The notes under the pieces were generated by a model. The model was given only the letters and a program-made list of their open reading frames with translations. It was not told the origin of the DNA and did not search any database. Both the position numbers and the translations under genes were made by a program. 11,057 nt of DNA from a candidate division KSB1 bacterium. Its GTDB lineage: Bacteria; Zhuqueibacterota; JdFR-76; DREG01. The stretch is from assembly GCA_022566355.1 (NCBI GenBank), contig JADFJB010000144.1, positions 1 through 11,057 on the forward strand. The letters are read 5' to 3'. This document shows, in pieces, positions 227 to 11,057 of the stretch (position 1 is its first letter; each line of letters starts with the position of its first letter).

Positions 227-367
227 ACAAAACTTCAGGAACGACAAATTATTTTTTTTTGACTGACTGAATTTGTAGTTAGATTGTTATTATGCATTTT
301 TATTTGAAATTACCCAACTGAAATATTCAAAAGGGGAGTCCTCACATACATCCCTCAAATCACAAAG

Positions 368-483
368 TAAATTAACCTGGATAATTCATGAATTATAGTT
401 TTAAGCTTAAAATTTCCTAATTGTCATCCCGTTGCGACGGGATGACAGTGATAAGGTTTATGAATAGATCAAGTTAAATTAGC
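368..483. repeat. Short form of a palindromic MITE-like repeat
   Basis: Positions 371-435 match the reverse complement of 8511-8575 at 61 of 65 bases. The match resumes after the central hairpin: 437-483 resembles the reverse complement of 8263-8309 with scattered substitutions. The outer ends are inverted repeats of each other (TAAATTAAC at 368-376, GTTAAATTA at 473-481), with looser similarity continuing about 25 bp inwards. The flanking DNA at the two loci is unrelated, so the boundaries behave like those of a mobile element. The element has no coding capacity. A TA dinucleotide at each end could be a target duplication of the IS630/Tc1-mariner type, but that is inference. Confidence 0.7.
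422..447. repeat. Perfect hairpin at the centre of the short repeat
   Basis: Arms TGTCATCCCGT (422-432) and ACGGGATGACA (437-447) are perfectly complementary over 11 bp, with the 4-nt loop TGCG. No T-run follows, so it is not a typical intrinsic terminator for either strand. It is the joined core of the repeat; in the long copy at 8263-8578 about 200 bp separates the two arms. Confidence 0.85.
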
Positions 484-8262: not shown

Positions 8263-8578
8263 GCTAATTAAACCTGATCTATTCATAATCCTTAACATTG
8301 TCATCCCGTTGCGGAGGCTGTTGCAGAATAGGCAAAAAGCCTGGAATTGTCATCCTGAACGGAGCGAAGCGGAGTGAAGGATCTTGTTTGAAACTCGTTG
8401 TAACTCTTGTATAATCAGGTTATTAAGGGCAGTACCAGCAAGATTCTTCTCCCGTCCAGGCGGGATCAGAATGACATTTCGCCAGATATGTGTATTCTGC
8501 GACAGACTGTGCGACGGGATGACAATTATGAAACTTTAAGCTTAAAACTATAATTCATGAATTATCCAAGTTAATTAA
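8263..8578. repeat. Long form of the palindromic MITE-like repeat, inverted relative to the copy at 368-483
   Basis: The outer parts (8263-8309 and 8511-8575) match, in reverse complement, the two halves of the short copy at 368-483. Here the arms are separated by about 200 bp of extra sequence. That insert has its own inverted ends and an inner nested palindrome (see 8299-8524). The element ends are AT-rich inverted repeats (TAATTAAAC at 8265-8273 and GTTAATTAA at 8570-8578). DNA outside these limits does not match the other locus. No protein is encoded; a 72-aa frame crossing the left part is a translation of repeat DNA. Confidence 0.72.
8299..8524. repeat. Nested palindromic core of the long repeat (GTCATCC type)
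   Basis: The outer arms 8299-8330 and 8493-8524 are inverted repeats with 27 of 32 bases matching. Both begin, read inwards, TGTCATCCCG and end in GCAGAATA. Inside lies a second imperfect palindrome: 8348-8385 starts TGTCATCCTGA and ends GGATCTTG, and 8439-8476 read in reverse starts TGTCATTCTGA and ends AATCTTG. The inner text, with GGAGCGAAGCGGAGTGAAGG, is the well-known dispersed repeat that gives spurious 'CHPERSE' peptides when translated. Confidence 0.75.
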
Positions 8579-8664
8579 CCATTTAGAGTTGAGTGCAAGA
8601 TGAAAATTGCCCGGTGATTTATTGCTGGGAGCGCATTTGATTATTTAACACTTGGTAAAGGATT

Positions 8665-9459
8665 ATGAACCCAAAACTAAAAAAATATTGGTCTGGCAAA
8701 TCCATCCTGATAACAGGCGCTTCTTCAGGTTTGGGCTATGCCCTGGCCGAAGCGCTTGCTCGCTATAATGTTCAATTAGGATTATTGAGTCGCAGGGAAC
8801 AACCCATGTGGGAACTGGCTGACAAACACCGGGACTCCGGTAGTAAGTTTTGGATCAAATCGTGTGATGTTCGGGAAAGAAGCGCTGTGGAATCTGCTGT
8901 GAGGGAATTTCATGAATATGCGGGAAAGATCGATGTCGCCTGGATCAATAGCGGTGTTGCCGGCAATACCCACTATCGAAAATGGAACTATGATTTTGTC
9001 GAAACCTTGATCGATACCAATATAAAAGGAGCTATTTATACCACAAAAGCATGCCTGGATTATATGGTTGCAAACGGTAGCGGCACGATCGTTGGTATTT
9101 CCTCGGCGTCTTCTATGCAAGGTCTTCCCGCCCGGGGAGTCTATAGCATGACCAAAATAGCGCTAACCTACTACCTGCAAAGTGTGGCGGCTGAACTACC
9201 GCAAATCCAGTTTACAATTATCAACCCGGGGTTTGTCGATACCCCGATCAACCGGGGCAATCCCAATCGATTTTGGTTGCTCTATCCGGACAAAGCAGCC
9301 CAACTGATGATAAAAGCCGTTGCAAAGAAAAAAGCGGTTTATACTTATCCCTTCAGGATGATGCTCCTGTATAAATTTGTCTGGCATTTGCCGGATTTCT
9401 GTCGAAACTGGCTGGCGCGTAAACTGGCCGCATTTAGTGATCCGGGGTCTGAGGGTTAA
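8665..9459 (+). CDS. Short-chain dehydrogenase/reductase (SDR)
   Basis: A 264-aa classical SDR, an NAD(P)-dependent oxidoreductase with a Rossmann fold. Visible motifs are TGASSGLG (17-24, dinucleotide binding), CDV with Asp68 (adenine pocket), NSG at 95-97 (NAG in most members), catalytic Ser147 in GISSAS, Tyr160 and Lys164 in YSMTK, and NPGFVDTP (187-194). Arg43-Arg44 after the second beta strand (LLSRRE) suggest a preference for NADP(H). The hydrophobic, basic C-terminal tail (PFRMMLLYKFVWHLPDFCRNWLARK in outline) could associate with membrane and is found in SDRs acting on lipid or sterol-like substrates, but the substrate is unknown. ATG 8665 follows AAAGGATT, a close-set ribosome site. 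The last 18 codons (9406-9459) are duplicated at 10229-10282, downstream of the toxin-antitoxin pair, so the present 3' end may have been supplied by recombination. Confidence 0.9.
   Translation: MNPKLKKYWSGKSILITGASSGLGYALAEALARYNVQLGLLSRREQPMWELADKHRDSGSKFWIKSCDVRERSAVESAVREFHEYAGKIDVAWINSGVAGNTHYRKWNYDFVETLIDTNIKGAIYTTKACLDYMVANGSGTIVGISSASSMQGLPARGVYSMTKIALTYYLQSVAAELPQIQFTIINPGFVDTPINRGNPNRFWLLYPDKAAQLMIKAVAKKKAVYTYPFRMMLLYKFVWHLPDFCRNWLARKLAAFSDPGSEG
9406..9459 (+). repeat. Direct repeat copy 1 (3' end of the SDR gene)
   Basis: These 54 bases, ending in the SDR stop codon TAA, recur at 10229-10282 with a single difference: G at 9417 versus T at 10240. In the SDR frame the change is GCG to GCT, both Ala. 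Similarity stops at the stop codon on the right. The two copies flank the toxin-antitoxin segment in direct orientation. Confidence 0.95.
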
Positions 9460-9550
9460 GTTTTACAAAAAAGAAGATAAAATAGTCTGACTAAGTTTCT
9501 CATAATTTAAAGGGGAATATCAAAAACTTCTTGAATCACTATTCGAAGTT

Positions 9551-9571
9551 TTGTACATTTAGAACGTACAA
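9551..9571. promoter_or_regulatory. Candidate operator of the toxin-antitoxin operon
   Basis: TTGTAC (9551-9556) and GTACAA (9566-9571) are a perfect inverted repeat with a 9-nt spacer, ending 20 nt before the antitoxin ATG. TACAAT (9567-9572) could be a -10 element and would overlap the right half. Phd/YefM-type antitoxins, alone or with their toxin, commonly repress their own promoter by binding short palindromes in this position. The function is therefore inferred from position and symmetry. No good -35 element was found. Confidence 0.5.
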
Positions 9572-9591
9572 TTTGTTTAGTGGAGTATATT

Positions 9592-9822
9592 ATGGAAACC
9601 ATTGCTGTAAGCGATCTAAGAGTAAATTTGATGAAGGTATTAAAAGAGATAGAACATGGGGCTATAATAAATATCACTTCTAGGGGTAAGGTTGTCGCCA
9701 AACTAATTCCTCCGGAATATAGTAAGGAAATTGCAAAAAAGAAATTGAAAGAAATTAGTAAAACGGCTGTTATTAATGATGTGATTTCACCTGTTGACGT
9801 TCAATGGAAAGTAATGGAATAA
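9592..9822 (+). CDS. Phd/YefM-family antitoxin
   Basis: A 76-aa protein. The N-terminal ~45 residues match the Phd/YefM DNA-binding fold: METIAVSDLRVNLMKVLKEI (1-20), then GAIINITSRGKVVAKLIPP (23-41), including the typical ITSRGKxVAxLIP ending. The C-terminal part (42-76, Lys-rich then SPVDVQWKVME) would be the flexible region that wraps the toxin. I chose ATG 9592 over the in-frame GTG at 9580 because GGAG (9582-9585) lies 6 nt upstream of it and the family starts close to this point. The stop codon shares its last A with the toxin's ATG (TAATG), so the two genes are translationally coupled. It probably neutralises the PIN toxin and represses the operon through the palindrome at 9551-9571. 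The pair is AT-rich compared with the SDR gene and lies between two copies of the SDR 3' end, which suggests it arrived as a cassette. Confidence 0.88.
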   Translation: METIAVSDLRVNLMKVLKEIEHGAIINITSRGKVVAKLIPPEYSKEIAKKKLKEISKTAVINDVISPVDVQWKVME

Positions 9823-10214
9823 TGGTAACTTTGGATACTCATGTCATTATCTGGGATGCATTAAACCCGAAATTAGTTAGTAGAAAAGCCAAAGAAGAAA
9901 TAAGAAAAGCTCAACAGACTGGAGGCATTATTTTTTGTGAGATTTCATTATGGGAAATAGCGATGCTCATGAAAAAACAAAGAGTAATAATTGATATTAC
10001 CTACAAAGAGTTGATTGGATTAATAAAAGCTTCAAATAACTATATATTTAAAGGTATAACACCGGAGATAGCTGAACTTGCAATAAATTTAGCGAGTGAA
10101 ATAAATCAGGATCCTGCAGATCGCTTAATTTTGGCAACCTCTATAGTCACGAATGCTCCATTAGTAACAGCTGATAAAAATTTACAACAATCAAAACTAA
10201 AAACAATTTGGTAA
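9822..10214 (+). CDS. vapC: VapC-type PIN-domain ribonuclease toxin
   Basis: A 130-aa PIN domain of normal length for VapC. The acidic metal-binding residues are present: Asp5 in LDTHVIIW, Glu45 in ISLWEIA (Glu40 nearby), Asp97/Asp100 in DPADRLILATS, and Asp118 in LVTADKN. VapC toxins are Mg2+-dependent endoribonucleases that stop growth by cutting tRNA or rRNA; the target here is unknown. I chose ATG 9822 because it forms TAATG with the antitoxin stop and puts the first Asp at residue 5, as in the family. An in-frame ATG at 9804 would add MESNGI and overlap the antitoxin by 19 bp. All catalytic residues are intact, so the toxin is probably active and needs the upstream antitoxin. Immediately after its stop codon a displaced copy of the SDR 3' end begins. 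Confidence 0.92.
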   Translation: MVTLDTHVIIWDALNPKLVSRKAKEEIRKAQQTGGIIFCEISLWEIAMLMKKQRVIIDITYKELIGLIKASNNYIFKGITPEIAELAINLASEINQDPADRLILATSIVTNAPLVTADKNLQQSKLKTIW

Positions 10215-10216
10215 CC

Positions 10217-10282
10217 GATTCTATTTGTAACTGGCTGGCTCGTAAACTGGCCGCATTTAGTGATCCGGGGTCTGAGGGTTAA
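10217..10282 (+). pseudogene. Displaced 3' remnant of an SDR gene (direct repeat copy 2)
   Basis: Positions 10229-10282 repeat 9406-9459 at 53 of 54 bases and keep the reading frame and stop codon of the SDR gene (NWLARKLAAFSDPGSEG, stop). Upstream, 10217-10228 has the same 12-nt spacing from a GAT (Asp) codon as the intact gene but has diverged: Asp-Ser-Ile-Cys against Asp-Phe-Cys-Arg. The remnant starts 2 nt after the toxin stop codon and has no start of its own. It most likely is the original or an alternative allele of the SDR end, cut off when the toxin-antitoxin segment was inserted. Confidence 0.88.
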
Positions 10283-10490: not shown

Positions 10491-11057
10491 ATGGAAATAA
10501 CAGAAAAGCTACTAATTGAATTACAAAACCGACTGAAAGTTGGTAGCCGGAGAGGTGTACATTTAAATGCAATGCCAGCACGTTCAAGATATAAATTTGA
10601 CCTCACAAGATTATCCCATATAGATGAAGATTTACCTAAAAACTTCATCAATGCACTTCTAACTGAACAACCCTTAAAATTTAAAATAAGTTGGAAAGAC
10701 AACGTACCTGATTTGAATTCACTTTTTGAGGATAACCAAACTCAATTAGTAAAAATTACGAAATCATTTGAAAATTTAATTAATCAGACTGACGCAATAG
10801 AATCAGAAAAAGGTATAAATACTTTTGGATTTGGATTTCCTCTACTTGTCAGAAGAGATCAATCGGATAATAAACTGACTGTAGCTCCAATACTAATTTG
10901 GTCATTAAAGATTAAAAGAACGAAAGAATTTAATACTTGGGTAATTCTAAGAGATGAAGAGGACCCCATTTATATCAATGAAGTTCTTATTAATCATTTA
11001 CAAAGTGATTCAAAAATAGAAATTGATCAATTATCATCTGATCTATTAGATGATGGC
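10491..11057 (+). CDS. N-terminal part of an unrecognised, probably large protein (3' end outside window)
   Basis: An open frame runs from ATG 10491 to the window edge, 189 residues with no stop. The start is uncertain: no clear Shine-Dalgarno sequence precedes it (AAAAGAATCGAAT), and an ATG at 10474 in another frame stops after 8 codons. There is no signal peptide. The protein begins MEITEKLLIELQNRLKVGSR, then a conserved-looking block KFDLTRLSHIDEDLP (about 35-49), and later FGFGFPLLVRRD followed by KLTVAPILIWSLKI (about 112-141). A 'G-F-P-L-L ... L-x-x-A-P-I-L' pattern followed by polar text resembles the N-terminal region of very large AAA/SF1-helicase-type proteins (such as DUF4011-AAA-nuclease proteins) often found in defence regions. 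That is a weak, memory-based resemblance: the ATPase motifs would lie beyond the window. It is visibly more AT-rich than the SDR and amidohydrolase genes, which fits acquired DNA. Confidence 0.65.
   Translation, partial: MEITEKLLIELQNRLKVGSRRGVHLNAMPARSRYKFDLTRLSHIDEDLPKNFINALLTEQPLKFKISWKDNVPDLNSLFEDNQTQLVKITKSFENLINQTDAIESEKGINTFGFGFPLLVRRDQSDNKLTVAPILIWSLKIKRTKEFNTWVILRDEEDPIYINEVLINHLQSDSKIEIDQLSSDLLDDG

What the first reader, a model, noticed from the sequence alone, without database searches (positions are those of the whole stretch)
9406..10282. Toxin-antitoxin pair bounded by two copies of the neighbouring SDR gene's 3' end
The last 54 bases of the SDR gene recur just after the toxin gene with one synonymous difference (GCG/GCT), in the same direction and still ending in the in-frame stop. 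The 12 bases before copy 2 keep frame but have diverged. A simple target-site duplication on insertion would not be 54 bp with a synonymous change. The pattern fits a segment that replaced the gene's end with an allele from a relative and pushed the old end downstream, as integrating islands do at gene ends. Here the island is only about 770 bp and encodes just the toxin, the antitoxin and their control region. No integrase is visible, so the mechanism may be homologous or helped in trans. It could represent a minimal gene-end-targeting cassette.
Basis: partly seen in the sequence, partly recalled or inferred. Interest (0 to 1): 0.72.

Follow-up and report, generated by a model that had tools for sequence, protein, structure and literature searches.

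The report
Toxin-antitoxin insertion duplicating a gene end
A tiny two-gene toxin-antitoxin unit, with no enzyme of its own for moving DNA, inserted at the end of an unrelated gene and left a second copy of that gene's last ~54 bases behind it; similar scars around related units elsewhere suggest that such units can spread on their own.

Summary
The last 54 nt of the SDR gene (9406-9459) recur at 10229-10282 with one synonymous mismatch. The repeat is unique in the genome and brackets a Phd antitoxin / PIN-domain toxin operon.

The pattern recurs. Direct repeats bracket other loci of this Phd-PIN subfamily in unrelated bacteria: carB start (33 nt), an intergenic hairpin (51 nt), a ferredoxin gene start (38 nt). 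They also bracket other Phd-type pairs: Phd-YoeB at a Y-family polymerase gene end (39 nt), Phd-ParE at a glutaredoxin gene end (89 nt), Phd-VapC on a Fukatsuia plasmid (518 nt). In the window's phylum 13 of 99 Phd loci carry bracketing repeats, against about 4 of 160 control windows (p = 0.001); about half are dispersed repeats.

Best reading: insertion of a stand-alone toxin-antitoxin unit with long, variable target duplication, as described for restriction-modification genes. It is not a gene-3'-end-specific island: targets include gene starts and intergenic DNA, and the units share no end sequence. Whether the repeat is locally copied or came from a relative is unresolved.

The parts
8665..9459 (+). 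SDR-family oxidoreductase gene (264 aa), intact; the target gene
   Evidence: ORF; Pfam PF00106 E=6e-40; 67% identical orthologue in the same family followed by unrelated DNA
9406..9459 (+). direct-repeat copy 1: last 54 nt of the SDR gene including the stop codon
9551..9571 (+). probable operator TTGTACATTTAGAACGTACAA upstream of the antitoxin, part of the inserted unit
   Evidence: same palindrome (TTGTAC...GTACAA type) at the same place in L042, L060, L068, L069, L072, L137; role inferred
9592..9822 (+). Phd/YefM-family antitoxin (76 aa)
   Evidence: PF02604 E=8e-8; TIGR01552 phd_fam
9822..10214 (+). PIN-domain (VapC-like) toxin (130 aa); Asp5, Glu45 and Asp118 invariant and Asp97/Asp100 nearly invariant among 20 relatives
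   Evidence: PF01850 E=3e-13; alignment A2
9460..10228 (+). inserted segment between the repeats (769 nt): control region, antitoxin, toxin, 14 nt
   Evidence: bounded by the repeats; 84% nucleotide match to a unit elsewhere in G002/L042 covers 9531-10217 and fails outside it
10229..10282 (+). direct-repeat copy 2: orphan copy of the SDR 3' end, one synonymous difference

Best explanation
A self-contained Phd antitoxin / PIN toxin unit of about 0.77 kb inserted at the 3' end of the SDR gene, in an event that doubled 54-60 nt of the target, so that an intact SDR gene lies upstream and an orphan gene end downstream. It belongs to a wider pattern, insertion of stand-alone toxin-antitoxin units with long and variable target duplication, which spares the target gene because one copy stays whole. 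The unit is then probably kept by addiction. Shown: the repeat, its uniqueness, the same anatomy at unrelated targets, and the single-copy empty site at the thiH locus. Inferred: the insertion itself at the window's locus, addiction, and the joining step. For the joining step I favour recombination without a dedicated recombinase. It could be template switching or end joining at short homologies that recopies the target, or recombination with DNA from a relative that already carried the unit beside the same gene.
For: Repeat and uniqueness. In the Phd-PIN subfamily 6 of 40 loci have bracketing repeats scoring 23 or more: the window, L052, L060, L062, L072, L116. Controls give 1 of 991 positions scoring 25 or more. 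Leaving out the window and the gapped L072, 4 of 43 against 1 of 991 gives p = 1e-5, or p = 0.03 against a conservative place-level control. For Phd/YefM loci of the phylum, 13 of 99 score 21 or more, against 10 of 1400 random positions, p = 0.001 at place level. The targets are unrelated: carB 5' end, intergenic hairpin, ferredoxin-like 5' end, Y-family DNA polymerase 3' end, glutaredoxin 3' end, plasmid higA/lipoprotein junction with 518 nt (94, 98, 101, 111). The second copy starts about 0-16 nt after the toxin stop in win, L052, L060, L068, L116, L137, L158 and L288. Empty sites: in L257, L265, L272, L273, L274 and L278 one thiH end lies 20-122 nt from the next gene, while L068 has toxin, orphan thiH end, then the same next gene. 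A TGGTGA microhomology lies at the right junction of L288.
Against: No close relative of the window's species is held, so the empty site was not seen at this locus; the nearest orthologue (67% identical) has different flanks. Most subfamily loci (about 85%) show no bracketing repeat. About half of the 13 phylum-wide brackets are dispersed intergenic repeats rather than coding targets. L072 contains a 10-N scaffold gap, and L068 lacks its upstream thiH copy because the contig ends. Syn-biased differences between copies do not fit simple local duplication followed by neutral decay.
Confidence: 0.72

Rival explanations
1. Imported gene end (a sub-model of the joining step, not exclusive of the best explanation). 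The unit arrived by homologous recombination with DNA of a relative (linear, or a circle formed by recombination between repeats) that already carried it beside the same gene. Copy 1 is then the donor's gene end and copy 2 the displaced native end.
For: 23 of 34 differences between copies at third codon positions in five gap-free cases, p = 5e-5. The same subfamily sits at the same thiH 3' end in three Pontiellaceae genomes, as expected if it spreads with its gene. It also matches the e14/icd pattern (165-bp duplicated gene end, 12 changes, 2 replacements; PMC11148124).
Against: It does not explain how the unit first reached each unrelated gene, nor gene-start and intergenic duplications. The window has a single difference. 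In L288 both copies may be expressed, so selection on both is an alternative.
Confidence: 0.4
2. Relic of a larger integrating island: a tyrosine-recombinase element used the SDR 3' end as its attachment site, and everything but the toxin-antitoxin pair was later deleted, or the recombinase acts in trans.
For: Gene-end duplication with intact reading frame is the classic product of such elements. Copy 2 ends in the stop codon.
Against: No integrase in the window. Deletion would have to stop within 0-16 nt of the toxin stop at many unrelated sites. Attachment sequences and cassette ends share nothing. The subfamily is absent from viral contigs and phages.
Confidence: 0.1
3. No insertion of the pair as a unit: a second SDR gene or a tandem duplication was deleted down to its 3' end next to a pre-existing toxin-antitoxin pair.
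For: Orphan gene ends can arise that way; no empty site is known for this locus.
Against: It would need the same coincidence, with the orphan starting 0-16 nt after a toxin stop, at several unrelated genes. The thiH empty sites have one gene only.
Confidence: 0.07
4. Assembly artefact from strain mixture: the pair or one repeat copy was joined from another strain or locus.
For: Contig C149 of the same draft genome starts with 82 nt identical to the toxin gene and continues into an IS3-type element, so a second copy or strain variant exists. L072 shows that such joins occur (10-N gap).
Against: The window is gap-free, the copies have different flanks on both sides and differ by one base, and the same anatomy occurs in other assemblies, among them a plasmid record.
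Confidence: 0.06

Closest known systems
Insertion with long target duplication of restriction-modification genes (Nobusato et al. 2000, Gene 259:99; Furuta et al. 2010; cited in PMC3874152, PMC3031569, PMC1643837)
   Same: An addiction-type gene pair without transposase, flanked by long direct repeats of variable length made from the target; genes at the target survive.
   Different: Here the cargo is a type II toxin-antitoxin pair of about 0.8 kb, and the duplications (29-518 nt, mostly under 100) often fall on gene ends or starts. The reviews state it for restriction-modification systems and I found no report for toxin-antitoxin pairs in the searched library.
e14 / phage 21 type integration at the 3' end of icd (e14 as described in PMC11148124)
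   Same: Gene 3' end duplicated around an insert, reading frame kept, differences mostly silent.
   Different: That is a prophage with an integrase and one fixed site; here there is no integrase, no shared site and a two-gene insert.
Transposed genes with flanking repeats in Arabidopsis (PMC2869330)
   Same: Ordinary genes inserted with direct repeats of target, mainly genic, sequence; circle insertion by homologous recombination proposed.
   Different: Plant genes, no addiction; repeats often also present at the donor site.
VapBC-like Phd-PIN toxin-antitoxin systems
   Same: Domain composition, gene order, overlapping genes, palindromic operator.
   Different: Nothing unusual in the proteins; the novelty is in the insertion scar.

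Membership tests
Insertion with long target duplication | Insert bracketed by a long direct repeat of target sequence | tested here: met
   54/54 with 1 mismatch, unique in the genome
Insertion with long target duplication | Single copy of the target in relatives without the insert | tested here: inconclusive
   Met at the related thiH locus; no close relative for the window's own locus
Insertion with long target duplication | Repeat length and target vary between events | tested here: met
   29-518 nt; gene starts, gene ends, intergenic
Insertion with long target duplication | Cargo is a restriction-modification system (the only cargo so far described in the papers read) | tested here: not met
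   Cargo is Phd antitoxin + PIN toxin; hence 'works like', filed as a variant
Integrase-dependent gene-end island (ICE, prophage, mobilisable island, CIME) | Integrase gene or shared attachment sequence | tested here: not met
   No integrase in the window; related inserts share no repeat or end sequence
IS/transposon or composite transposon | Transposase or terminal inverted repeats, short fixed target duplication | tested here: not met
   No transposase gene in the window; duplication lengths vary
VapBC-like (Phd-PIN) type II toxin-antitoxin | Antitoxin DNA-binding protein upstream of an overlapping PIN toxin with conserved acidic residues | tested here: met
VapBC-like (Phd-PIN) type II toxin-antitoxin | Toxin inhibits growth and antitoxin neutralises it | not testable with these tools
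   needs expression in a laboratory strain

The most novel reading that the evidence does not exclude
Type II toxin-antitoxin pairs are autonomous selfish units that spread through bacterial chromosomes and plasmids without any recombinase. They insert at gene boundaries with long target duplications; the duplicated gene end keeps the target gene alive and may later serve as homology for excision and for transfer into relatives.
Probability: 0.35. Interest if true: 0.8.

Novelty: new variant of a known kind. Interest (0 to 1): 0.6.

Why it matters
How chromosomal toxin-antitoxin pairs spread when they lie on no recognisable mobile element is an open question. A scar that can be searched for, a repeat of a neighbouring gene end starting a few bases after the toxin stop, lets insertions be found, dated and compared with empty sites in any well-sampled species. 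It extends to toxin-antitoxin pairs a mode of movement so far described for restriction-modification genes, the other class of addiction modules.

Tried and rejected
(1) Gene-3'-end specificity: rejected, because L052, L062 and L155 duplicate the start or 5' part of a gene and L060 and L116 duplicate intergenic hairpins. (2) Common cassette ends or inverted repeats: sequences just inside the repeats of win, L052, L060, L137 and L158 share no motif by eye. (3) L072 (183-nt thiH repeat, 15 of 17 differences at third positions) looked like the best proof of an imported allele, but a 10-N scaffold gap lies between toxin and copy 2, so it is left out of the codon statistics. (4) Six of the 13 phylum-wide brackets (L127, L144, L167, L179, L196, L206) look like dispersed intergenic repeats; they inflate the count, so coding-target cases are named separately. 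(5) Search for the SDR end or the toxin on viruses and phages: none; plasmid relatives are under 40% identical. (6) A larger island around the subfamily loci, 4.5 kb each side: no consistent wider repeats. (7) Fifteen plasmid Phd-PIN loci: one clear case (L288), fourteen without. (8) The empty site for L288 is not found among plasmids or E. coli.

Full report
Observation. The window (contig C144 of a 4.6-Mb draft genome) contains an intact SDR oxidoreductase gene (8665-9459). It is followed by a Phd antitoxin (9592-9822), an overlapping PIN toxin (9822-10214) and, 14 nt after the toxin stop, a second copy of the last 54 nt of the SDR gene (10229-10282), with one synonymous difference. The match continues weakly for six more bases. 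The repeat is found nowhere else in the genome or in 82 genomes of the phylum. The nearest SDR orthologues (67% identical or less) are full genes; the one inspected, in G001, has a single 3' end and different downstream DNA. The most similar unit elsewhere (84%, L042) matches the window only from 9531 to 10217, that is, the unit itself. The SDR side and the downstream side are therefore not part of what moves.

Is it a one-off? Thirty-four relatives of the toxin were fetched from bacterial genomes, with a few more from later searches. In the window's subfamily, direct repeats bracketing the operon were found in L052 (33 nt), L060 (51 nt), L062 (38 nt), L072 (183 nt) and L116 (44 nt), besides the window. 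Controls at other positions of the same loci gave 1 of 991 at score 25 or more. Reading them showed unrelated targets. In L052 the true gene is carB, downstream, and the upstream 33 nt are an orphan copy of its start. In L060 the target is an intergenic hairpin of which only the left half is repeated upstream. In L062 it is the start of a ferredoxin-like gene.

Generality. All Phd/YefM antitoxins of the phylum were located and 99 usable loci tested: 13 have a bracketing repeat scoring 21 or more, against 10 of 1400 positions in 400 kb of random DNA from the same genomes. At the level of independent places this is 13 of 99 against about 4 of 160 (p = 0.001). About half of these brackets are dispersed intergenic repeats. 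The coding cases repeat the window's anatomy: L158, Phd-YoeB after a Y-family DNA polymerase gene, whose last 39 nt including the stop recur 7 nt after the toxin; L137, Phd-ParE after a glutaredoxin gene, whose last 89 nt recur 14 nt after the toxin; and L155 (5' part of a downstream gene). On a plasmid of Candidatus Fukatsuia symbiotica, a Phd-VapC pair is bracketed by 518 nt running from codon 13 of higA into the next gene; both target genes survive whole, one on each side, and the right junction lies on a TGGTGA shared by toxin end and target.

Empty-site test. Genomes without the pair (L257, L265, L272-L274, L278) have one thiH 3' end followed within 20-122 nt by the next gene. L068 has the toxin, then an orphan thiH end (LEPIFKNRDSTYREPARYQST*, with the otherwise conserved Trp changed), then that same next gene; its contig stops before the upstream copy. 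L069 has thiH, the pair, a further insertion of about 0.6 kb (probable IS) and the next gene. In L256 thiH is fused to a remnant of the antitoxin. L072 carries a scaffold gap and is not relied on.

Mechanism. Four facts constrain it: duplication length is variable; targets are unrelated and not only gene 3' ends; the insert carries no recombinase and has no common ends; and the right edge lies 0-16 nt after the toxin stop in most clear cases. A site-specific recombinase is therefore unlikely. Insertion with long target duplication, described for restriction-modification genes (PMC3874152, PMC3031569, PMC1643837), fits. Two joining routes remain. One is local recopying of the target at insertion. 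The other is import of the unit together with a relative's gene end. The second is favoured by the excess of third-position differences between copies (23 of 34, p = 5e-5, five gap-free cases) and resembles the icd duplication around prophage e14 (PMC11148124). The first is favoured by gene-start and intergenic targets and by the microhomology in L288. They can act in sequence: first insertion by recopying, later spread between relatives by recombination. Target-gene survival explains why the scars lie at gene boundaries: insertions that break a gene would be lost.

Verdict. The gene-end-targeting part is not supported. Known kind: insertion with long target duplication. New part: the cargo is a toxin-antitoxin pair, with several independent examples and an empty-site comparison at one related locus. 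No earlier report for toxin-antitoxin pairs was found in the searched library, which lacks most subscription papers (Furuta 2010 is not held; Nobusato 2000 was seen only as cited), so priority is uncertain.

Noticed in passing
G000 contig C149 (L040) 1-95; window 9805-9886: Another contig of the same draft genome begins with 82 nt identical to the antitoxin end / toxin start, then a 2-nt deletion and an IS3-type element (two transposase ORFs, TGTTTC...GAAACA ends) followed by unrelated DNA: a second, broken copy of the unit or a strain variant.
   Followed up: partly
window 367-435 and 8511-8579, also 434-483 and 8263-8312: Long inverted-repeat arms (69 nt, 93%; 50 nt, 88%) about 8 kb apart, intergenic, containing 'CGGGATGACA' type sequence: probably a dispersed intergenic repeat family of this genome.
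   Followed up: no
window 10491-11057: Start of a DUF4011 protein running off the contig; weak match to the anti-phage protein ProA model (score far below its cut-off), so the site may border a defence region.
   Followed up: no
L158 1425-2033: Phd-YoeB pair inserted at the 3' end of a Y-family DNA polymerase gene with a 39-nt gene-end copy after the toxin.
   Followed up: yes
L288 2015-3911 (NZ_CP021661.1): Phd-VapC pair bracketed by a 518-nt direct repeat that spans higA and the start of a lipoprotein gene; 14 differences, 10 at third codon positions.
   Followed up: yes
L256 1840-1953: thiH gene fused in frame to the C-terminal remnant of the Phd antitoxin, a footprint of a lost toxin-antitoxin insertion that changed the host gene's end.
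   Followed up: partly
L042 6067-6072: The closest relative of the toxin (84%) carries an in-frame TAA, so this copy is broken.
   Followed up: no
L115/L116 about 1090-1136 and 1895-1938: Toxin-antitoxin pair bracketed by AGGTTGGGTTAAGCGAAGCAACCCAAC hairpins, the toxin stop codon lying at the repeat boundary.
   Followed up: partly
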